From Alphaproteobacteria bacterium (GTDB lineage: Bacteria > Pseudomonadota > Alphaproteobacteria > Caulobacterales > Maricaulaceae), in assembly GCA_024742735.1 (NCBI GenBank), contig JANSXV010000001.1:744001-808000 (forward strand): a stretch of 64,000 bases of DNA, read 5' to 3'. Positions 10,686 through 18,641 of this stretch are shown here, in pieces; positions within the stretch are counted from its first letter, which is position 1; the number at the start of each line of letters is the position of its first letter. The notes under the pieces are model-generated. The model saw nothing but the letters and a program-made list of their open reading frames with translations, was not told the DNA's origin and did not search any database. A program made the position numbers and the translations under genes.

Positions 10686-10760
10686 GCCGCCATAGCTCAG
10701 GGGTAGAGCGTTCCCTTGGTAAGGGAGAGGTCCACAGTTCAAATCTGTGTGGCGGCACCA
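10686..10760 (+). tRNA. tRNA-Thr(GGT)
   Basis: Cloverleaf: acceptor GCCGCCA pairs with TGGCGGC; D-arm GCTC...GAGC; anticodon stem TTCCC/GGGAG with loop TTGGTAA giving anticodon GGT; T-arm with GTTCAAATC; CCA encoded. Its 3' portion, 10706-10762, is duplicated exactly at 18585-18641, so the gene is the attachment site of the adjacent integrative element and was kept intact by the insertion. Confidence 0.97.
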
Positions 10761-10762
10761 TT
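10706..10762 (+). repeat. attL: 57-bp direct repeat within tRNA-Thr
   Basis: Begins GAGCGTTCCCTTGGTAAGGG and ends GGCGGCACCATT. It covers the anticodon arm, T-arm and acceptor 3' strand of tRNA-Thr plus 2 bp, and is identical at every position to 18585-18641. Bases flanking the repeat differ between the copies on both sides, which fixes the limits. Confidence 0.97.
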
Positions 10763-10839
10763 ACTTACCCAGCAAAAACAATAGTATATGCGCTTGTCTC
10801 AATCCGCAGACGGACGGTTTTTGGCCCCAGTACTGCCGC

Positions 10840-10859
10840 TGTCCCAAGTATGTCCCAAG
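10840..10859 (+). repeat. Left integrase arm-type sites
   Basis: Two direct copies of TGTCCCAAG at 10840-10848 and 10851-10859, spaced 11 bp, with a related inverted copy (CTTGGGGACA) at 10894-10903. The same octamer GTCCCAAG recurs with identical 11-bp spacing next to attR. Position just inside attL and one-turn spacing fit arm-type binding sites of the integrase or excisionase (inference). Confidence 0.65.
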
Positions 10860-10927
10860 CGTGATCGAACTTCCCAACGGGCCTCAGGACACACTTGGGG
10901 ACAGCCGATGAGGCCTCAAAGTCTGCT

Positions 10928-11176
10928 TTAAGCAGCAGCAGTTTCAGCCGCAAGACGTGCTTCAGTCCCGCTCTTGAATGCCTGCGAGCGAGCCCAAGTG
11001 TCCACCTCGGAGAGCTTGAAGGCGATCCGACGCCCGATGTTGTAGCAGGGGAATGGCACCTCTCCGCGCTCTCTCCACTTCCGCAGGGTAGACGGCTTCA
11101 GACCGAGAAACTCAGCAGCATCGTTCAGGGAGACATAGGGTTCAGGTTGGGTGGTTTGGTTGTGGTTCGTGGTCAT
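10928..11176 (-). CDS. Helix-turn-helix excisionase/AlpA-like DNA-binding protein
   Basis: An 82-residue protein with a MerR/excisionase-type winged helix: YVSLNDAAEFLGLKPSTLRK followed by WRERGEVPFPCYNIGRRIAF, a pattern of the HTH_17 family in which one finds phage excisionases and AlpA regulators. CAGGAACC precedes the ATG. It is the gene closest to attL and the last of the leftward row, an expected place for a directionality factor; a transcriptional regulator role is equally possible. Confidence 0.75.
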   Translation of the reverse strand: MTTNHNQTTQPEPYVSLNDAAEFLGLKPSTLRKWRERGEVPFPCYNIGRRIAFKLSEVDTWARSQAFKSGTEARLAAETAAA

Positions 11177-11205
11177 GGTTCCTGTTCAGCGGTAGACGCG
11201 GCCTC

Positions 11206-11222
11206 CCGCAGGCTCATGAGCC
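11206..11222. repeat. 17-bp repeat with 12-bp palindrome, copy 1
   Basis: CCGCAGGCTCATGAGCC, ending in the perfect palindrome GGCTCATGAGCC. An identical 17-bp copy is at 11949-11965. This one lies about 30 bp upstream of the start of the HTH gene, so an operator for that protein is conceivable (inference). Confidence 0.6.
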
Positions 11223-11380
11223 GAGGACTAGCCCCGGCTCCCTCCCCCCTCGGCTTCCTTCAGAAACTCAGGGAGGGGGTACGGGGGGAAGCGCGCTTCG
11301 ATATAGATGATTTCGGGCTCTCAGATTTTTGGGCCGAAATCTCGACCCCACCAGAGAGGCTTGGGGTTGCCTTGAGCGGC

Positions 11381-11460
11381 GGTTTAGGCGGGGGCTAATG
11401 GCCGTCTCGGTGTGTCCATAGGCCAACCTACCGGAGCCGCTCGGATGCTCATTGGCCCCG
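11381..11460. repeat. Element-specific palindromic repeat, copy A
   Basis: About 80 bp running from TTTAGGCGGGGGCTAATGGC to CTCATTGGCCCC; outer arms are inverted repeats. It fills much of the 11177-11500 gene-free stretch, which also holds an imperfect hairpin at 11309-11341 (GATTTCGGG / GCCGAAATC). Copies A and D share CAACCTACC(G/A)GAGCC in the centre. Confidence 0.75.
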
Positions 11461-11500
11461 GAGGGCTTTGCCCGAGGACAGGCCTAGGCCCCAAAGCGAT

Positions 11501-11854
11501 CTACTCATACGAAGGCCCGGAGGCTTCCATCGGGACGCCATGGAGAAACTCCGCAGGAAACACGCGGTAGGTCTCATGGCGCTGATAGTGAGCTTCAACG
11601 CCTTCGAGGTAGGTCCGGCGCTCGGCTTGGAGCCGGGGTACGGCCTCAGCCGTCAGCCGCTCCATTTTCGACTTGCGCTCAAGCCTGAGAGCCTCAAGGG
11701 CGTTGGCCTTGCGCTCGGCCCGGCGTTGTCTGGCGTAGGCGTTCTGACACTCCTTGCAGCGGGTCAGGCGTCCGCCTTTGGAGCGTTTCACGAAGGCCTC
11801 GTAGGGCTTGGTCTCACCGCAGTCTCGGCAGACTTGGGTTTCAGGCTCTTTCAT
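11501..11854 (-). CDS. Zinc-finger protein of the phage endonuclease VII-like type
   Basis: A 117-residue protein with an N-terminal four-cysteine finger, CRDCGETKPYEAFVKR then CKECQNAYARQRRAERK. This finger is common at the N-terminus of phage HNH / recombination endonuclease VII-like proteins. The remainder is a charged helix and a short tail without an HNH motif, so nuclease activity is not supported. GAGGG lies upstream of the ATG. Palindromic repeat B separates it from the preceding gene. Likely a nucleic-acid-binding accessory of the element. Confidence 0.6.
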   Translation of the reverse strand: MKEPETQVCRDCGETKPYEAFVKRSKGGRLTRCKECQNAYARQRRAERKANALEALRLERKSKMERLTAEAVPRLQAERRTYLEGVEAHYQRHETYRVFPAEFLHGVPMEASGPSYE

Positions 11855-11871
11855 GGATGGCCCTCACGTTC

Positions 11872-11950
11872 GTTTTAGGCGGGGGCCATTGGCCGTCTAG
11901 GGGTATCCGAAGGGTAGACCACCAGAGACAGTGAGACGGTCATTGGCCCC
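11872..11950. repeat. Element-specific palindromic repeat, copy B
   Basis: Begins GTTTTAGGCGGGGGCCATTG and ends GGTCATTGGCCCC. Its centre contains TCCGAAGGGTAGACCA, shared exactly with copy C. It lies in the gap between two leftward genes, partly within the leader of the zinc-finger gene. Confidence 0.75.
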
Positions 11951-11965
11951 GCAGGCTCATGAGCC
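11949..11965. repeat. 17-bp repeat with 12-bp palindrome, copy 2
   Basis: Exact second copy of CCGCAGGCTCATGAGCC, abutting the end of palindromic repeat B and lying upstream of the zinc-finger gene. Confidence 0.6.
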
Positions 11966-11983
11966 ATTGGCTCCGCGCATTCA

Positions 11984-12193
11984 CTACGCCTCAGGCTTGG
12001 GCTTCTGTGGGATCATCCGAGAGGCCGTCTCTTCGATCCATCGGCCAAGGTCTCTGAGGGTCTCAGGCGTGGTCGTGGCGAGCGGGTCCACGTCGATTTG
12101 GACCTTCCCCGGCTCTCCGGCGCGGGCCCTCAGGGTGACGGCCTTGGACGGAGAGACGAGGAAGTGAACGGGGAAGCGGGCGGTCTTGGGCAT
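11984..12193 (-). CDS. Small hypothetical protein of the element
   Basis: 69 residues, no recognised domain. An N-terminal beta-rich part (FPVHFLVSPSKAVTLRARA) is followed by a helix (ETLRDLGRWIEETASRM) and a basic proline tail. It starts 20 nt after the stop of the preceding gene with AAGGA a little far upstream. Position in the compact leftward row supports it being expressed; function unknown. Confidence 0.6.
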   Translation of the reverse strand: MPKTARFPVHFLVSPSKAVTLRARAGEPGKVQIDVDPLATTTPETLRDLGRWIEETASRMIPQKPKPEA

Positions 12194-12213
12194 GGCGTGT
12201 TCAATCCTTCGGG

Positions 12214-12504
12214 TCAGCCGTTGATTTCCTCAATGCGGTCGCAGAGCCCAACGGCTCGGCGCGTCATGAGGTCTGCAATCGACGGCAGGGGCGTGGCGTT
12301 GAGCTTGAGGTCCTCGCGCCATGCGAGTTGACGCAGGCACTTCAGAACACCGTGGAAGCCCTCGCGGGTGAACTTGAGGTTCTCATAGCGGGGCTTGCCG
12401 TTCTTCCGGGTCCCCTTGCGCTTGGACACGATGAGCTGAAGGGGATCGCAGCGCAGCGCGAGGTCCTCATTGAGGTCCATGAGGAAGCGGTCTTCGGTCT
12501 TCAT
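12214..12504 (-). CDS. Hypothetical protein of the element
   Basis: 96 residues, mixed charged, with a basic patch (SKRKGTRKNGKPRYENLKF) that may bind nucleic acid. No family recognised. A near-perfect AGGAGG lies 7 nt before its ATG and only 11 nt separate it from the upstream gene, so the two are almost certainly co-transcribed. Confidence 0.68.
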   Translation of the reverse strand: MKTEDRFLMDLNEDLALRCDPLQLIVSKRKGTRKNGKPRYENLKFTREGFHGVLKCLRQLAWREDLKLNATPLPSIADLMTRRAVGLCDRIEEING

Positions 12505-12515
12505 CGCCGGACCTC

Positions 12516-13418
12516 CTAGCGCCGCTTGGCGTAGTTGATGACCGCAGCCGGAACCCAGTCCGGGAGGGTCGCCGGTTGGGCCGGGGAGGTCAGGAAGCCG
12601 ATCAGGAAGCGTAGGGCGGACGTGGCCTCAGTTGGCAGCTTGGAAGCGAGAGCCTCAGCGGCCTTCCACTGGGAAGCCGTCAGGTCCCGGTCGAGGGACT
12701 TCAGGGCCGTCCGCAGGGCTGCGAGGGCGTTCACCGGGCTTTGATGGTTCGACATCAAGACCCCGTTGGTGTTCGTGCAGAACCAATGGTCTGCGTTGCG
12801 GCTCTTGATCCAGACCGCGAAGCCGCCGCGTTCGATCCGCAGGGCGGTGTCGGGAGAGAGCTTGGCGAGAAGGATGGACGGATAGCCCGCGCCATTCCTA
12901 CCTATGACCTTAGAGCCTGCATCCTCGGAGACATCGCCTTCGATGGACGCCAGCCCGTCGAGGCTTAGCCGGACGCGATTAACGGGGTTGGAGGTCGTGG
13001 TTTCCACCTTCAGCCCATGGACCCGCTTGCGCTCGGCTACGAGGTCAGGGTGTACCCATGCCGGGGGCTCTGAGGTCATGGCCCCGCCCGAGGCGATATT
13101 GTGGACGGCCTGATAGGCCGCAGCGGCCACCGCAGGGACGCCATGGAGGAGAAGGTCTACCTCCCGGTTCCCGGTGAGGCCCAGAGCCTCGGCTTGCTGG
13201 CGGAGCGTGGTTTTGTCGCGCGCGAGGCCATTGGGACAACGCAGAGCCCCCGTGTCGAGAGTCAAGATGCGATAGGCCTGCGGTTCAATACGGATGGCGT
13301 AGGCTTGGCCTGCGTTCTCCACCTCGCAGAGTAGGTATGAGGAACCGCCGTTGGCGAGCGTGGCTTTCAGGGCCGTGAGATTAGACGCGGAGAGTTGTTC
13401 GACGGCGTGAGACATCAT
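12516..13418 (-). CDS. Hypothetical protein, largest unknown of the element
   Basis: 300 residues from the ATG at 13418, chosen because AAAGGA lies 5 nt upstream; the frame upstream to 13613 runs through a hairpin and repeats and is not protein-like. The N-terminal third is rich in short strands (GSSYLLCEVENAGQAYAIRI), the centre carries VETTTSNPVNRVRLSLDGLA, and the C-terminus is helical and basic (ending YAKRR). No signal peptide or membrane segment. I do not recognise the family. It directly follows the scaffold-like gene in transcription order, so a role in capsid redirection or packaging is possible, but nothing in the sequence shows it. Confidence 0.7.
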   Translation of the reverse strand: MMSHAVEQLSASNLTALKATLANGGSSYLLCEVENAGQAYAIRIEPQAYRILTLDTGALRCPNGLARDKTTLRQQAEALGLTGNREVDLLLHGVPAVAAAAYQAVHNIASGGAMTSEPPAWVHPDLVAERKRVHGLKVETTTSNPVNRVRLSLDGLASIEGDVSEDAGSKVIGRNGAGYPSILLAKLSPDTALRIERGGFAVWIKSRNADHWFCTNTNGVLMSNHQSPVNALAALRTALKSLDRDLTASQWKAAEALASKLPTEATSALRFLIGFLTSPAQPATLPDWVPAAVINYAKRR

Positions 13419-13533
13419 CGAGGTCCTTTTGTTGTTGCTGGGATGGGTTGCGGGGCTGAGCTTGTTCTCAGCCTTCGGCTTGCGGGGCTGAGGCCGGTCC
13501 TCTGCTTTCAGCCTGCGGGGCGTGAATGACAAA

Positions 13534-13597
13534 AGAAGCCGAACCCGCGCCTCAGGAGGCCCTAGGGGAGGCTTCCCGGTCGCATGGTTCGGCTTCT
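13534..13597 (-). terminator. Hairpin between scaffold-like gene and next gene
   Basis: Twelve-base perfect inverted repeat AGAAGCCGAACC (13534-13545) / GGTTCGGCTTCT (13586-13597), with a nested GCCTC/GAGGC pair in the loop. On the minus strand the stem is followed by TTTG, giving a plausible intrinsic terminator or attenuator after the scaffold-like gene. The gap also holds two copies of TTGCGGGGCTGAG at 13448 and 13480. Confidence 0.6.
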
Positions 13598-13674
13598 CTC
13601 TCTCTCCGCTCACGCCAGACGGAGAGCTGGTTACGCCTAGGCTTGTCCTCGGCTGAGAGACAGTGGGAACGCGC

Positions 13675-14163
13675 TTAGGCGTCCCAGTCTGTCGCGGCGA
13701 TCCGAGCCTCTACGGTTTCAGCGTAGGTCGGGTCGCTGCGGTATCGCGGGTCTTGAATGGCCGCGATCATGTCGGATTGCGTCTCGAAGGCCGGAGCCTC
13801 AGGGACGGGCTTCATCTCGTGGGCTGAAGCGTTTCCAAAGACCCCTTCGAGCTGAACGCCTATGGACGGAGATGAGGCCGGTTCCATAGGCGCACTCATG
13901 GGCGCGCTCTCTGGCCCTTGGAAGGACCTTCCTTGCGCCTCATAGGCTTGACTGAGGTCGTGAACGAAAGCCTCAAATCGGGAGATGTCCTTGCCGTCGA
14001 GTGCGTCGTTCAAGGCTGCGTCGAAGGCTTCCTTGGAGGCTTGGTCCAAGGTGTTACGTCCGAAGTCTACGAGCGCTCGAAGTCGGTCATAACCGCCGCC
14101 TGCGAGGAGAACGCGGTCTTCGTAGCGCTCCTCCTTCGAGGGCGAATAGTCGATAGGTCGCAT
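13675..14163 (-). CDS. T7 gp9-like capsid scaffold protein fragment
   Basis: 162 residues. The C-terminus, SDMIAAIQDPRYRSD followed by PTYAETVEARIAA, matches what I recall of the extreme C-terminus of T7 gp9 (SEMIKAMSDPRYRTD...YRRQVEQK). The region GGGYDRLRALVDFG...FDAALNDALDGKD parallels the GGRERFDALYNHL...LDNALTNRD segment of gp9. Gp9 is about 307 residues and acts inside the procapsid; this protein corresponds mainly to its second half, the part expected to contact capsid protein. A proline/alanine/serine linker joins the two conserved blocks. It lies alone without portal or capsid genes, downstream of three promoter-like repeats. A capsid-remodelling role, as with satellite scaffold proteins of P4 or PICIs, is an inference. 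Confidence 0.78.
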   Translation of the reverse strand: MRPIDYSPSKEERYEDRVLLAGGGYDRLRALVDFGRNTLDQASKEAFDAALNDALDGKDISRFEAFVHDLSQAYEAQGRSFQGPESAPMSAPMEPASSPSIGVQLEGVFGNASAHEMKPVPEAPAFETQSDMIAAIQDPRYRSDPTYAETVEARIAATDWDA

Positions 14164-14353
14164 GGTCGTCTTTCTGGTCTGGCGTGAGTTTGGCTGAAGC
14201 CCCGGTCTTCGCGGGGAAGGCGGTCGCGAACGAAGAGGCCCCCGCCTGCGTCAACCTTTCGGCAAACGCCAGCGAGGGCCTCTCCATCTCAGCAATAAGG
14301 ACCACCGCTCCCACATCGACCGTAGGGAGCTTCAGGGACGCAGTTCAGGGCGT

Positions 14354-14415
14354 CCCGGTGTTCCCTGAGGAGTGAGCTTTGGACGCCAAGAGGCGCAGCC
14401 TCAGGAAACACCGGG
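14354..14415. repeat. Long inverted repeat in the leader of the scaffold-like gene
   Basis: CCCGGTGTTCCCTGAGG at 14354-14370 pairs with CCTCAGGAAACACCGGG at 14399-14415 (16 of 17), and imperfect pairing extends about 11 bp further out. It falls between the promoter-like repeats and the scaffold-like gene, so a minus-strand transcript would carry a long hairpin. RNase III processing site, attenuator or DNA cruciform are all possible. Confidence 0.7.
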
Positions 14416-14424
14416 AGGTCCTGA

Positions 14425-14518
14425 AGATGTCTTTGAGATTATGACTACGGAGATGTCTTCTTCGTCGTCGAGCTATGGAAGGTCTAAAAGAGAGACTGAA
14501 GGTATCTTTAGATGTCTT
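14425..14518. repeat. Triplicated AGATGTCTT and weak hairpin
   Basis: AGATGTCTT occurs at 14425, 14451 and 14510. Between 14485 and 14535 GAGACTGAA and TTCAGTTTGTCTC can pair; on the minus strand the stem is followed by CTTTTAG, resembling a weak terminator. The whole stretch 14164-14796 contains no convincing gene. Confidence 0.4.
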
Positions 14519-14624
14519 TCAGTTTGTCTCTTGGCCCCCCTTCCCCCCAGAGCAGTGTCTCTGGGTTCGTCTTCGTCATCGTCGATCATGGGTGATCTTG
14601 GAGAGCGCGGCTGAGAGCGATCTT

Positions 14625-14773
14625 TCTCCTATAACACTGGGTTTTGGATCGGCCTTGGTCGGAACCTGTCTCCTGTGTTACAGAGGGTTTTGAAAATCCA
14701 TTTGATTTCAGAGGCTTGGCGGAGGGGCGTTGCCGATTGCGAGCGAACTCGTCCCCTATAACACTGGGTTTTT
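14625..14773 (-). promoter_or_regulatory. Three direct repeats resembling phage-type promoters or iterons
   Basis: On the minus strand: AAAACCCAGTGTTATAGGGGA (14752-14773), AAAACCCTCTGTAACACAGGAGA (14669-14691) given here only as a description of the second variant copy, and AAAACCCAGTGTTATAGGAGA (14625-14645). Copies 1 and 3 agree at 20 of 21 positions; copy 2 diverges in the middle. Copies 1 and 2 are also similar for about 15 bp upstream (AATGG-TTTTCAAAA). The TATAGG(G/A)GA ending recalls T7-type RNA polymerase promoters, and all point toward the scaffold-like gene. Iterons of a replication origin are the other reading. Confidence 0.55.
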
Positions 14774-14796
14774 GAAAGCCATTGTACTTCAATGAC

Positions 14797-15432
14797 TTAC
14801 GGAATCTCCGAGGCTCTACGTCCCAGAGAGGCGTCCATGAACTCAGCAGGCCCCAGCCCCGCAGGCCGAAGCCCGAAGCCCGCTCTCACTGACGTTCGCC
14901 CTACGAGAAGACAAGCCTCGGCCCAGACACGTCCATAGGCGGCGATTTTGGCGGGGCTAATGCGCTTCCGAAGGTGTCCGAAGGGTAGACCAGCGGGGAG
15001 CCTCGGATCGGCGTTGGCCCCTCGGTCTCTCAAGGCGATGAGCTTCATGGCGTGGGAAAGGTCCCGCGCGTCAGGCGTAGGAGGCTTAAGGCTGTTCCTA
15101 AGGGGCTCGCCGGGGGCCTCCTTAGGCTTATTGCCGCATATCTCCTGCCAGCGGTCCCACGACACCGGCCACTCACGGGCCAGCTTCATGAGCTGCCCGA
15201 TGCGGGATCGGGAGATGTCCAGTATACTGGATATTTCCACCTTCAGCGGCTCGAACTCCCCGTGCTTACACGCGGCCTTCAGCTCGATCAGGGCTTCCCC
15301 GGCGTTCTTGTAGTGAACCAGCGCCTCGTCTCGCTTGGCGTCTCCAAGGCGAACCTCGGAGACCACGCGGGAGACCAGCCGGTCGATCTCCCGCACGGTC
15401 GGCAGGTCGTGGCGGTTACGTCGATCCATCAT
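14797..15432 (-). CDS. DUF3102-like DNA-binding protein
   Basis: 211 residues from the ATG at 15432, which overlaps the preceding stop as ATGA. The segment YKNAGEALIELKAACKHGEF and then ISRSRIGQLMKLAREW resembles DUF3102-type proteins: a helix bearing the AGEAL-E-K motif, then an HTH. These are found on plasmids and phages and are thought to act in replication or regulation. The C-terminal ~70 residues are partly encoded by palindromic repeat C and look unlike a conserved domain, suggesting that the repeat extended or replaced the original end. Confidence 0.6.
   Translation of the reverse strand: MMDRRNRHDLPTVREIDRLVSRVVSEVRLGDAKRDEALVHYKNAGEALIELKAACKHGEFEPLKVEISSILDISRSRIGQLMKLAREWPVSWDRWQEICGNKPKEAPGEPLRNSLKPPTPDARDLSHAMKLIALRDRGANADPRLPAGLPFGHLRKRISPAKIAAYGRVWAEACLLVGRTSVRAGFGLRPAGLGPAEFMDASLGRRASEIP
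14944..15021. repeat. Element-specific palindromic repeat, copy C
   Basis: Begins GATTTTGGCGGGGCTAATGC and ends GCGTTGGCCCC; shares TCCGAAGGGTAGACCA with copy B. Unlike the other copies it lies inside a coding frame, the 3' part of the DUF3102-like gene. Confidence 0.7.
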
Positions 15433-15641
15433 GAGCCCTTGCCCTCCCATTGGTCCAAGTCGAGGACAAACGGACCAGCCCGGAGCGTCGTCCCTGTGTG
15501 CTCTCGCTCAACGAAGAAGGCGGGAGAGCCTTTCGGAGCCGGGTCCCAAGCGAGATGGAAACCGCGTCCGTTGCGGGCGAAATGGAGAAGCGTGAAGCCG
15601 TCGAAGGCGGTGAAGCTCAGCGAAGCGGTATGCAGCGTCAT
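15429..15641 (-). CDS. Small hypothetical protein, translationally coupled
   Basis: 70 residues (MTLHTASLSFTAFDGFTLLHF...DLDQWEGKGS), beta-rich, no recognised family. GAGGA lies 4 nt before the ATG and its TGA overlaps the start of the DUF3102-like gene, so translation of the two is coupled. First gene of the leftward row after the divergent promoter region. Confidence 0.62.
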   Translation of the reverse strand: MTLHTASLSFTAFDGFTLLHFARNGRGFHLAWDPAPKGSPAFFVEREHTGTTLRAGPFVLDLDQWEGKGS

Positions 15642-15949
15642 AGTTCCTCTACCGGGTCGTCTTTGTGTGCGTGTCGTGGAGCCTAGAGCGGCTCTGAAAC
15701 TTGGAAATACGAATCCGTCGCGCCGACCTCAAGTGCATGAAGTTAAATTGTTTTATTGATTTTCTTGCCCATTCGTGATACGCAGATATCGAAGCTGAGG
15801 ACTCCAATTCCCATCGCCGCCTTCTGCTGTTCCGGCATTTGCGTTGCAGATCGCGGACATAAAGAAGCCGGGCAGGTTCCCATTGGGGCTGGTTTTGTGA
15901 CGCGGCGTGACGCAGGTTGTACGCGCAAACCAATTCAGGGAATTGAAAC
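15642..15949. promoter_or_regulatory. Divergent intergenic region, AT-rich
   Basis: About 308 bp between the leftward row and the rightward Mrr gene. It contains the most AT-rich tract of the element (around 15736-15780, TTAAATTGTTTTATTGATTT). Promoters for both directions are expected here; I cannot assign -35/-10 boxes with confidence. The small open frames within it are not convincing genes. Confidence 0.45.
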
Positions 15950-16885
15950 GTGATACCAGACTTCCAATCGCTTATGCGTCCGGTGCTGAGTTACGCGGCG
16001 GCGCGCGAGGAAGCGCGCATAGGCGCTGCGGTGTCTGATCTAGCAGACGAACTGGGGCTATCAGACGAAGAGCGGGCTGAGCTTCTTCCCAGCCGGAAGC
16101 AGACGCGGTTCGCCAATCGCGTGCATTGGGCGAAGTTCTACTTGACCCGAGCGGAACTCGTTAAGGCCACGAAGCGCGGCTACTTCCAGATTACAGAGGC
16201 GGGGAAGGAGGCGCTGAAAACCGACGAGCAGATCAATATGGCGTTCCTTGAGCGCTTCGAGGCCTACCGGGAGTTTCGCGAGAGTATGACGAAGGACGAT
16301 GCAGGCGATGAAGCCGCAGCTCGCCCTACTCAATCGCAGTCCGATGATGACGTGGACGATGCGACACCGGACGAACAGCTCAGGTCGGCGCACAAGCTCA
16401 TAAACGACGCCCTTGCGGCAGAGCTTCTCGAAAAGCTGCGAGACGCAACTCCTGCCTTCTTCGAGGAAGTGATTGTGTCGCTTCTTCTGGCGATGGGCTA
16501 CGGCGGGGCAGATGAAGGCGCTGGCAGAACCCTTGGCCAGAGCGGTGACGGCGGCGTTGATGGGGTCATAGACCAAGACCCGCTAGGCGTTGACCAGATA
16601 TATGTTCAGGCAAAGCTGTATCGCGAAGGGAACAATATCGGCCCCGGAGCGATCCGGGATTTCTTCGGAGCGCTGGACATCAAGAAGGCCAAAAAGGGAA
16701 TTTTCGTTACTGCCTCAACCTTCTCCCGAAGCGCGCGAGAGACGGCTGCGGCGCTAGGCACGCGAATTGTCCTTATCGACGGCCACGAATTGGCCCGCCT
16801 GATGATCCGTTACGGGGTCGGGTGCCGGGTCATAAACGTGCTTGAGGTTAAGCAGATTGACGAAGAGTTCTTCCCCGATCCGTGA
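15950..16885 (+). CDS. Mrr-type restriction endonuclease
   Basis: 311 residues. The N-terminal ~90 residues are the Mrr_N winged-helix domain (IPDFQSLMRPVLSYAAAREE; ELGLSDEERAELLPS). Residues ~150-300 form the PD-(D/E)xK catalytic domain with GQSGDGGVDGVI (Asp) and YVQAKLY (Q-x-K). Mrr enzymes cleave DNA carrying particular methylation, thereby excluding modified foreign DNA, often phage. Start is GTG with AGGGAAT upstream. It is the only rightward gene of the element, and no methyltransferase accompanies it, as expected for a type IV enzyme. Best read as defence cargo. Confidence 0.9.
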   Translation: MIPDFQSLMRPVLSYAAAREEARIGAAVSDLADELGLSDEERAELLPSRKQTRFANRVHWAKFYLTRAELVKATKRGYFQITEAGKEALKTDEQINMAFLERFEAYREFRESMTKDDAGDEAAARPTQSQSDDDVDDATPDEQLRSAHKLINDALAAELLEKLRDATPAFFEEVIVSLLLAMGYGGADEGAGRTLGQSGDGGVDGVIDQDPLGVDQIYVQAKLYREGNNIGPGAIRDFFGALDIKKAKKGIFVTASTFSRSARETAAALGTRIVLIDGHELARLMIRYGVGCRVINVLEVKQIDEEFFPDP

Positions 16886-16897
16886 TGCCCTTCAGCG

Positions 16898-16979
16898 GCG
16901 TTTTAGGCGGGGGCCAATGACCGTCGAGAGGGTTCCTCGGGTCAACCTACCAGAGCCCCCTCAGAACGTCATTGGCCCC
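16898..16979. repeat. Element-specific palindromic repeat, copy D
   Basis: Begins GCGTTTTAGGCGGGGGCCAA and ends AACGTCATTGGCCCC. It fills the gap between the convergent Mrr and integrase stop codons, where a bidirectional terminator function would be useful, although no T-run follows. Confidence 0.75.
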
Positions 16980-16983
16980 ACCG

Positions 16984-18282
16984 CTAGGCCGGGAACCGAA
17001 CCACGTTGGACGCGGCCTCCTCAGTCGCCTCCTCGCCAGCCGCGATGCGCTCCACAAGACGCCCCCAAGCCTCCAAGGCCCGGCGCTTGTCCGGGAGGTA
17101 GGCGTTAAGGTCGTAGGTGCGCTGAAGGCCAGAGCCGGTGGCGTGGTTCAGCACCAGCTCCCCCACATGAGGCTCCATACCGATCCTCTCAGGGTCTGTG
17201 ATGGCCGTCCGGCCAGTCCGGCGAAGGTCATGCGGCGTAAGGTTCTCAATCCCCAGAACCTCACAGTCACGCCGGAAGACCTGAGTGAGGGAGTTCCGCT
17301 TCAGGGTCCCGTCCCCATCGCGGCCTGCGAAAGGCCCTTCGTGATCGCCGTTCATTTCCAAGGCGGCTTCGAGGACGGCGACGGCCTGAGAGGAGAGCGG
17401 GACAACGGCCTCCCGGCCTTCCTTCTTGCGGCCCTCTGGGAGCGTCCAGACCTTCCGCTTCCAGTCGATTTCCTCCCACCGCATTGACGCTACTTCCTCG
17501 CCCCTTTGAAGCGTCAACGCCATGAACTGAAGCGCGAGAGCCCCAGAGACGGCCCGAGGGTCGCCTCCTGTCGCCTTGGCGTCCCAACGGGTCCAGAGCG
17601 CGCGGAGTTCTTCGTCTGAGGCCCGGCGCGTCCTCGGCTTCTCCGGGAACTTCTCAATGTGCTGCATGGGGTCCAGTTCGATCCACTTCAGGAAGTGGGC
17701 GTGCTTGAAAAGCTGAAGGAGGTACTTGCGCGCGTCGTTCGCGGCCCCTGCGCCTGTCCCACCGCTCCGCTTTGCGGCCTCGGCTTGGACCTCAAGAAGG
17801 AACTCCATGATGTCTGTGTGATCCACTTCGGAGACGATGCGGTGTCCAAGGCCGGGGACGATCTTCGCCTCCACCTGATACCGGGCCTTCTGGAGCGTCG
17901 AGAGCCTCTTACCGCTGCGGCGCTCTTCGTGAGCGAGATAGAGTTCCCCGAGGCGCTTGAATGTCCGCTCGCGCTTCTCGACGCCCTTCTTGCGGGTGGC
18001 CTTGCGCTCGGCTCCGGGGTCCTTCTTGTCGCTGCGGACATCGGCGCGGACCTTCGCGGCCATGTCGCGGGCCTTCTCCGGGAGGAGGCTTGGGTACTCC
18101 CCGAGGATTTGGTCTGAGTTCTTACCCTCGGCGGTCACATAGCGGACGGCGAACTTCTTGCGGCCTGTCGGATAGACGAAGAGGCAGAAGCCGGGCTGGT
18201 CGGTGTCGTTGATCCGGTACCGTTTGGGACGGATTTCGGCGTTTTCGACGGATCGCTTGGTGAGTTTGAGTTTCTCGGGCAT
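16984..18282 (-). CDS. int: P4-type tyrosine recombinase / integrase
   Basis: 432 residues. The N-terminal DUF4102-type arm-binding region (LTKRSVENAEIRPKRYRIND; GFCLFVYPTGRKKF) precedes a core-binding domain and the catalytic domain, with Arg in TLQRGEEVASMRW, HDLRRT, the late LNH and the nucleophilic Tyr in LQRTYDLNAY. Length and layout match integrases of P4-like elements that use tRNA genes. It sits beside attR and is transcribed inward, as usual. It should mediate recombination between the two 57-bp repeats. Confidence 0.95.
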   Translation of the reverse strand: MPEKLKLTKRSVENAEIRPKRYRINDTDQPGFCLFVYPTGRKKFAVRYVTAEGKNSDQILGEYPSLLPEKARDMAAKVRADVRSDKKDPGAERKATRKKGVEKRERTFKRLGELYLAHEERRSGKRLSTLQKARYQVEAKIVPGLGHRIVSEVDHTDIMEFLLEVQAEAAKRSGGTGAGAANDARKYLLQLFKHAHFLKWIELDPMQHIEKFPEKPRTRRASDEELRALWTRWDAKATGGDPRAVSGALALQFMALTLQRGEEVASMRWEEIDWKRKVWTLPEGRKKEGREAVVPLSSQAVAVLEAALEMNGDHEGPFAGRDGDGTLKRNSLTQVFRRDCEVLGIENLTPHDLRRTGRTAITDPERIGMEPHVGELVLNHATGSGLQRTYDLNAYLPDKRRALEAWGRLVERIAAGEEATEEAASNVVRFPA

Positions 18283-18431
18283 TTTCGGCGCGTTTCACTT
18301 CCTGAGGACTTATGGCGAACCCTAGGAGGGGATTTGGAGGGGACTTCGTTGGGACGCTTCTCAGCTTGGCTGTTCTGACAACGCGGTGAAGACAGCAAGT
18401 CGCCTCGAAGTGTCCCTGAAAACCCCAGAGC

Positions 18432-18460
18432 GTCCCAAGAATGTCCCAAGTATGTCCCAA
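18432..18460 (+). repeat. Right integrase arm-type sites
   Basis: Three direct copies of GTCCCAA(G) at 18432, 18443 and 18454, spaced exactly 11 bp. They match the pair at 10841 and 10852. The 18283-18584 stretch contains no gene; it probably also carries the int promoter. Confidence 0.65.
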
Positions 18461-18584
18461 TTTCAAGGCCGAAAAGCGTCGAACTCCATCGCACTCAATA
18501 CGAAAGCCAACGAGGTCTAAACGCCTGTTTTTCCATGGAAAACAAACAAACAGTCGATGAGAAACAGGCACTTAGAACATATCT

Positions 18585-18641
18585 GAGCGTTCCCTTGGTA
18601 AGGGAGAGGTCCACAGTTCAAATCTGTGTGGCGGCACCATT
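18585..18641 (+). repeat. attR: 57-bp copy of the tRNA-Thr 3' part
   Basis: Identical to 10706-10762. Lacks the tRNA 5' half, so it is not a functional tRNA. Marks the right junction of the element with chromosomal DNA. Confidence 0.97.

What the first reader, a model, noticed from the sequence alone, without database searches (positions are those of the whole stretch)
15950..16885. Mrr-type nuclease as defence cargo
The only rightward gene, with its own start region in the most AT-rich part of the element and a base composition unlike the chromosome around it. Methyl-directed restriction would exclude phages competing with the presumed helper.
Basis: partly seen in the sequence, partly recalled or inferred. 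Interest (0 to 1): 0.5.

Follow-up and report, generated by a model that had tools for sequence, protein, structure and literature searches.

The report
Mrr restriction gene in phage-satellite cargo slot
An intact modified-DNA-cutting restriction enzyme gene sits in the exchangeable slot of a small integrated DNA element that looks like a parasite ("satellite") of T7-like phages, because its conserved core carries half of a T7-type capsid scaffold gene; the enzyme is ordinary, the satellite is unusual.

Summary
Window 15950-16885 (+) is a 311-aa GTG-start gene with the full Mrr layout (Mrr_N 7e-28, Mrr_cat 3e-33; PADLOC type IV 1e-79) and the PD-QxK residues of E. coli Mrr, to which it is 34% identical. 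It is the only rightward gene of a 7.88-kb element bounded by 57-bp perfect repeats at tRNA-Thr. It is AT-rich for this genome, but its upstream gap is only the second most AT-rich spot of the element.

One relative was found, in Marinicauda salina: 7.68 kb, another integrase, inserted in the 5' end of ettA, with the same core genes at 40-67% identity. Its slot between integrase and core, also opposite the core strand, holds a different two-gene unit, whose homologues in ICE R997 lie beside mcrBC and a restriction gene.

Beyond the finding: the core carries a stand-alone C-terminal half of a T7-type scaffold protein and no portal, capsid, terminase or tail gene. I read the element as a satellite of a T7-like phage. 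No helper was found. Restriction is inferred, not shown. The host encodes a CcrM-like protein, so an Mrr with E. coli's reported response to methylated GANTC would be self-harming; specificity should differ.

The parts
15950..16885 (+). mrr: type IV (modification-dependent) restriction endonuclease, winged-helix N-domain plus PD-QxK nuclease domain; cargo gene
   Evidence: Pfam Mrr_N 7e-28, Mrr_cat 3e-33; PADLOC mREase_IV 1e-79; FE172, D204, Q220-A-K222 shared with E. coli K-12 Mrr
15642..15949 (.). divergent intergenic region upstream of mrr (and of the leftward core genes), 51.9% GC
10706..10762 (+). att repeat, left copy: 3' end of the intact tRNA-Thr(GGT) gene 10686-10760
   Evidence: 57-bp perfect direct repeat; tRNA
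18585..18641 (+). att repeat, right copy (tRNA 3' end only)
   Evidence: same copy seen in the own-genome hit list
16984..18282 (-). tyrosine integrase (Arm-DNA-bind_3, Phage_integrase)
   Evidence: Pfam 2e-14 and 1e-15; phrog_1 3e-54
15429..15641 (-). g70: conserved small core protein, function unknown
   Evidence: 67% identical in the M. salina element
14797..15450 (-). g217: possible DNA-binding regulator (only weak, sub-threshold DUF3102 / sigma70_r4-like hits); only the N-terminal stretch survives in the M. salina element
14623..14772 (-). three direct copies of a motif CAAAACCC..GTTAYA..GGRG upstream of the scaffold gene: candidate replication iterons or helper-responsive promoters
   Evidence: 0 expected by chance, but the pattern was derived from these copies; two copies at the homologous place in the M. 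salina element
13675..14163 (-). stand-alone C-terminal half of a T7 gp9-type capsid scaffold protein (162 aa)
   Evidence: PF05396 2e-8; phrog_1052 head assembly 2e-15, profile 176-293 of 293; alignment with phage scaffolds
12516..13418 (-). g300: large core protein, function unknown, element-specific
   Evidence: 60% identical in the M. salina element; no Pfam or PHROG family above chance; no phage match; one other genome locus
12214..12504 (-). g96: small core protein, function unknown
   Evidence: 66% identical in the M. salina element
11984..12193 (-). 69-aa ORF, function unknown, not found in the relative
11501..11854 (-). zinc-binding protein of the phage endonuclease VII / HNH type
   Evidence: phrog_1035 6e-12; 40% identical in the M. 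salina element
10928..11176 (-). excisionase-like HTH_17 protein
   Evidence: Pfam 3e-12, phrog_66 2e-12, TIGR01764 1.6e-6, just under its cut-off
11380..11464 (.). structured repeat copy 1
11871..11955 (.). structured repeat copy 2
14938..15021 (.). structured repeat, divergent copy inside g217
16899..16983 (.). structured repeat copy 3, between mrr and integrase

Best explanation
The gene is an intact Mrr-type type IV restriction endonuclease carried in the exchangeable slot of a 7.88-kb integrated satellite element. The element inserts site-specifically at tRNA-Thr through its own integrase (shown by repeats and gene content). It probably spreads in particles of a T7-like podophage: its core keeps only the C-terminal half of a T7 gp9-type scaffold, which I infer binds the helper's capsid protein and perturbs or redirects capsid assembly, as CpmB does for SaPI1. 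The Mrr would be expressed from its own divergent promoter region, bind foreign DNA bearing modified bases through its winged-helix domain, and cut it with the PD-QxK domain. It would thus protect host, element and an unmodified helper from modified phages and plasmids (inferred). Because the host encodes a CcrM-like methylase (GANTC), its specificity must differ from that reported for E. coli Mrr, which responds to methylated GANTC (inferred).
For: Nuclease: Pfam, PADLOC and active-site alignment. Element: 57-bp att repeats at tRNA-Thr, integrase, excisionase-like gene. Independent second element of almost the same size (7,681 vs 7,879 bp) with a different integrase and site, bounded by a 14-bp repeat in the 5' end of ettA; the element end supplies a replacement start (GTG-S-S in front of YQYVY, where the chromosome had ATG-S-S). 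Core conserved at 40-67% protein identity, slot content different. Slot pair homologous to a gene pair beside mcrBC in ICE R997. Scaffold: PF05396, phrog_1052 in both elements, tblastn to T7-like phages, conserved DPRY motif near the C-terminus. GANTC is the most depleted of 16 palindromes in both elements (4 seen vs 43 expected; 6 vs 40), more than in the chromosome (96 vs 278); one T7-like alphaproteobacterial prophage shows 3 vs 116. CcrM-like RAMA protein in the host. Precedents: defence hotspots in P4 (PMC9122126) and PICMI (PMC10803314).
Against: No helper phage or resident T7-like prophage was found, although the search controls were weak. Only two elements are known, so slot variability rests on n=2, and the other cargo pair is not recognised as defence by PADLOC. 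Close Mrr relatives are mostly solitary chromosomal genes, so the gene could be a passenger. No expression, restriction or packaging data. g300 gave no usable structure model.
Confidence: 0.62

Rival explanations
1. Mrr is a selfish passenger: a solitary nuclease gene that jumps between genomes and happened to land in the element, with no benefit to it.
For: The closest relatives (61-64%) sit alone between unrelated housekeeping genes in other genomes of the family; one is broken by stops and a frameshift (G065).
Against: It lies exactly in the slot that holds another gene set in the M. salina element, in the same relative orientation, and its reading frame and active site are intact.
Confidence: 0.2
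2. The nuclease acts against the helper itself, cutting its DNA or forcing takeover, rather than against competing phages.
For: Other satellites interfere strongly with their helpers (PLE versus ICP1, abstract of PMC7145576); a second nuclease-like gene lies in the core (11501-11854).
Against: Mrr enzymes are modification-dependent (PMC12707154), and T7-like phages generally have unmodified DNA (own knowledge). The slot gene is not part of the conserved core.
Confidence: 0.1
3. The element is a decayed remnant of a T7-like prophage, not a satellite; scaffold and Mrr are leftovers.
For: T7-like prophages do occur in Alphaproteobacteria (G683, G928), and a scaffold gene is a prophage gene.
Against: Two elements with different integrases and sites keep the same core, nearly the same size and exact ends, and both keep only the C-terminal half of the scaffold. 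Independent decay to the same state is unlikely.
Confidence: 0.08

Closest known systems
E. coli K-12 Mrr (EcoKMrr)
   Same: Same two-domain layout, 34% identity over the whole length, same FE / GDGGxDG / QAK active site.
   Different: The N-domain and linker differ most (35% and 10% identity, against 42% in the catalytic part). The host encodes a CcrM-like methylase, whose GANTC mark is the mark (M.HhaII) reported to activate E. coli Mrr (PMC12707154), so specificity should differ.
PICMI satellites of marine vibrios
   Same: Small integrated element (a concatemer of 8 copies is ~49 kb, so about 6 kb each), integrase, an accessory locus that holds restriction systems (PMC10803314).
   Different: PICMI integrate beside fis, carry a prim gene and no capsid-remodelling gene; here the sites are tRNA-Thr and ettA, no primase was recognised, and a scaffold half-gene is in the core.
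P4-like satellites
   Same: Defence hotspot with restriction systems (PMC9122126); satellite-encoded scaffold (Sid).
   Different: Sid is an external scaffold of other ancestry acting on P2; here the scaffold is a T7 gp9-type scaffold fragment. No P4 replication or capsid-decoration homologue recognised by Pfam or PHROGs.
SaPI1 with CpmB
   Same: CpmB is an alternative internal scaffold that binds capsid protein through a C-terminal part like that of the helper's own scaffold (PMC5644958).
   Different: Different phage type (80alpha versus T7-like), no sequence relation claimed; capsid-size effect not shown here.

Membership tests
Mrr type IV restriction endonucleases | N-terminal winged-helix Mrr_N domain | tested here: met
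   PF14338 7e-28, residues 5-90
Mrr type IV restriction endonucleases | C-terminal Mrr_cat nuclease with PD-QxK site | tested here: met
   PF04471 3e-33; FE172, D204, Q220, K222 conserved with E. coli Mrr
Mrr type IV restriction endonucleases | no cognate methylase beside the gene | tested here: met
   No methylase among the element's genes
Mrr type IV restriction endonucleases | cuts modified DNA | not testable with these tools
   needs an assay
Phage satellites | integrated, with own integrase and att repeats | tested here: met
   for the window; for the relative
Phage satellites | lacks a full set of virion genes | tested here: met
   Only a scaffold half-gene; no portal, capsid, terminase or tail hits
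Phage satellites | conserved core shared by independently integrated copies | tested here: met
   two elements; a small sample
Phage satellites | mobilised by a helper phage | not testable with these tools
   No helper found; needs infection experiments
PICI | primase/replication initiator module | tested here: not met
   No Pfam or PHROG primase or Rep hit in the element; phrog_154 for g96 only E=0.08
PICMI | insertion beside fis and the PICMI prim gene | tested here: not met
   Insertion in tRNA-Thr and ettA; no primase recognised
T7 gp9-type scaffolding proteins | match to the family profile, full length | tested here: not met
   Significant match only to the C-terminal 40% (profile 176-293 of 293), so a fragment or derivative, not a full member

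The most novel reading that the evidence does not exclude
These are the first two members of a satellite family that preys on T7-like podophages in Maricaulaceae. They hijack capsid assembly with a truncated copy of the helper's own type of internal scaffold, may take their timing from the helper through the repeated CAAAACCC..GTTAYA..GGRG motif upstream of the scaffold gene, and pay for their keep with exchangeable anti-phage genes such as this Mrr, whose specificity tolerates CcrM methylation.
Probability: 0.4. Interest if true: 0.72.

Novelty: new variant of a known kind. Interest (0 to 1): 0.45.

Why it matters
Mrr itself is familiar. The carrier is not: the satellite families I could compare with use P2-, 80alpha-, ICP1- or other phages, and full-text searches found no paper that joins phage satellites with T7-like phages or their scaffold (open-access library only). 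A satellite that keeps half of a T7-type scaffold would be a small, testable system for capsid hijacking in a very well understood capsid. The Mrr adds a question: how does a methyl-directed nuclease live in a host whose CcrM-like methylase should mark GANTC throughout the genome?

Tried and rejected
Helper search by motif: the pattern in IMG/VR gave 10 contigs, all one phage lineage in which the match is a symmetric hairpin followed by a T-run, i.e. terminator-like; rejected. Helper or relatives by g96, g300 and scaffold in viral contigs: none. T7-type RNA polymerase family in the bacterial family: nothing, but the control genomes rang in none either, so this is not informative. T7-like portal in 99 genomes of the family: nothing, no positive control. 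Motif in T7-like prophages and a Krakvirus: no convincing match. Structure of g300 from two sequences: mean pLDDT 37, discarded. Class-wide search (385 genomes) for g300: only the window's own genome. Reading the motif as T7-class promoters: two copies end in TATAGGRGA, near the T7 promoter end (own knowledge), the others do not; left open.

Full report
Observation. The window belongs to a 3.23-Mb genome of the family Maricaulaceae: the related element G081 was recovered under the name Marinicauda salina WD6-1, and G081 is of the same bacterial family as the window. ORF 15950-16885 (+) starts with GTG and codes for 311 residues. It matches Pfam Mrr_N and Mrr_cat with E-values of 7e-28 and 3e-33 and PADLOC's type IV model over its whole length (1e-79). 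It aligns end to end with four relatives from the same family (52-64%) and with E. coli K-12 Mrr (34%), and the residues FE172, D204 and Q220-A-K222 are shared by all six. Chance is excluded. The gene is the only + strand gene of the element and is AT-rich for this chromosome (GC3 0.67 against 0.84-0.90), but its upstream gap is only the second most AT-rich place of the element.

The carrier. A perfect 57-bp direct repeat, made of the 3' part of tRNA-Thr(GGT), bounds 7.88 kb. Inside lie an integrase, an excisionase-like protein, an endonuclease VII/HNH-type zinc protein, and several small unknown proteins. One gene, 13675-14163 (-), matches the C-terminal 40% of the T7-type scaffold family (PF05396 2e-8; phrog_1052 2e-15). 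tblastn finds the same region in hundreds of T7-like phages, where in the two records inspected the gene lies between portal and capsid genes. No portal, capsid, terminase or tail gene is present.

A relative. Of 137 genomes of the family, one other has this scaffold form. A pattern-based scan of a collection holding one genome for each of 84,980 species, with the g300 pair, gave the same place only. The M. salina element is 7,681 bp between two copies of TAGACGTACTGGTA and sits in the 5' end of ettA (gene named from its MSSYQYVYHMDNLAKTYPGGK start, own knowledge). Its edge carries GTG-AGC-AGT in front of YQYVY, so the host gene regains a start. The integrase is different, but the core follows in the same order with 40-67% protein identity. 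Its scaffold form again matches only the C-terminal part (phrog_1052 3e-17).

The slot. In both elements the stretch between integrase and core carries genes on the strand opposite to the core: Mrr in the window, and a membrane protein plus an ECs_2282-family zinc protein in M. salina. PADLOC does not recognise the latter pair. A homologous pair in the same order (41% and 40% identity) lies directly behind mcrBC and a restriction endonuclease gene in ICE R997. This is guilt by association, but it fits an exchangeable accessory slot. Close Mrr relatives in other genomes are solitary genes between housekeeping genes, one beside an HsdM-like gene and an integrase, one broken; Mrr relatives also occur on plasmids, one of them beside type I restriction genes. 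The gene thus moves on its own account.

Mechanism. Shown: domain layout, intact active site, mobile carrier, slot. Inferred: DNA cutting that depends on modification, as reported for E. coli Mrr (PMC12707154), and benefit to element, host and unmodified helper by excluding modified rivals, as satellites do in P4 (PMC9122126) and PICMI (PMC10803314). A constraint follows from the host: it encodes a CcrM-type protein with a RAMA domain, and E. coli Mrr is set off by M.HhaII, which methylates GANTC (PMC12707154). An enzyme with that specificity would attack its own chromosome, so this Mrr should read another mark or tolerate this one. GANTC is also the most depleted of the 16 possible palindromes in both elements (ratios 0.09 and 0.15, chromosome 0.35), as it is in one T7-like alphaproteobacterial prophage (0.03); another is at chromosome level (0.32). 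GANTC under-representation in alphaproteobacterial genomes is known (PMC3973325). Given the chromosome's own ratio, the extra depletion has Poisson p of 0.001 and 0.015; it is consistent with a phage-like life in CcrM hosts but not proof.

Scaffold and helper. The scaffold half recalls CpmB of SaPI1, an alternative internal scaffold that binds capsid protein through a C-terminal part like that of the helper's scaffold (PMC5644958); this is a likeness of mechanism only. No helper was found in viral contigs, nor a T7-like prophage in the family, and those negatives are weak. T7-like prophages do exist elsewhere in the class.

Verdict. The Mrr gene is a new member of a known enzyme family. The carrier is a likely satellite with an unusual capsid-related core, known from two genomes.

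Noticed in passing
window 11380-11464, 11871-11955, 14938-15021, 16899-16983; L004:9247-9335 and 12532-12620: An ~85-nt structured repeat (12-bp outer stem GGGCYAATGG../..CATTRGCCC, inner hairpin) between genes of both elements; two pairs with changes on both sides. The three best copies are the only ones in the host genome. No Rfam match.
   Followed up: partly
window 14623-14772; L004:9538 and 9768: Repeated motif CAAAACCC..GTTAYA..GGRG upstream of the scaffold gene in both elements; iterons or phage-responsive promoters.
   Followed up: partly
window 10763-18584 and L004:6246-13912: Very strong GANTC depletion in both elements; G928 T7-like prophage has 3 sites where 116 are expected.
   Followed up: yes
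L004:7745-8547: Two-gene unit (membrane protein plus ECs_2282 zinc protein) with homologues in the same order in ICE R997 beside mcrBC; the membrane protein also matches 82 plasmid records, 77 of them predicted conjugative. A candidate for an uncharacterised defence or exclusion unit.
   Followed up: partly
L004:6232-6245 and 13913-13926: Element inserted into the 5' end of ettA and restoring the reading frame with its own GTG start.
   Followed up: yes
L004:9064-9330: The homologue of g217 in the M. salina element keeps only its first ~28 residues, so this gene may be dispensable or replaced.
   Followed up: no
downstream of tRNA-Thr in L049-L061: All 14 same-genus genomes keep the tRNA-Thr; where the contig reaches far enough, the DNA between it and the conserved right-flank gene differs in length (roughly 1-5 kb), so the place is a variable site.
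   Followed up: partly
L046:9942-10861: A broken mrr relative (stops and a frameshift) in G065.
   Followed up: no
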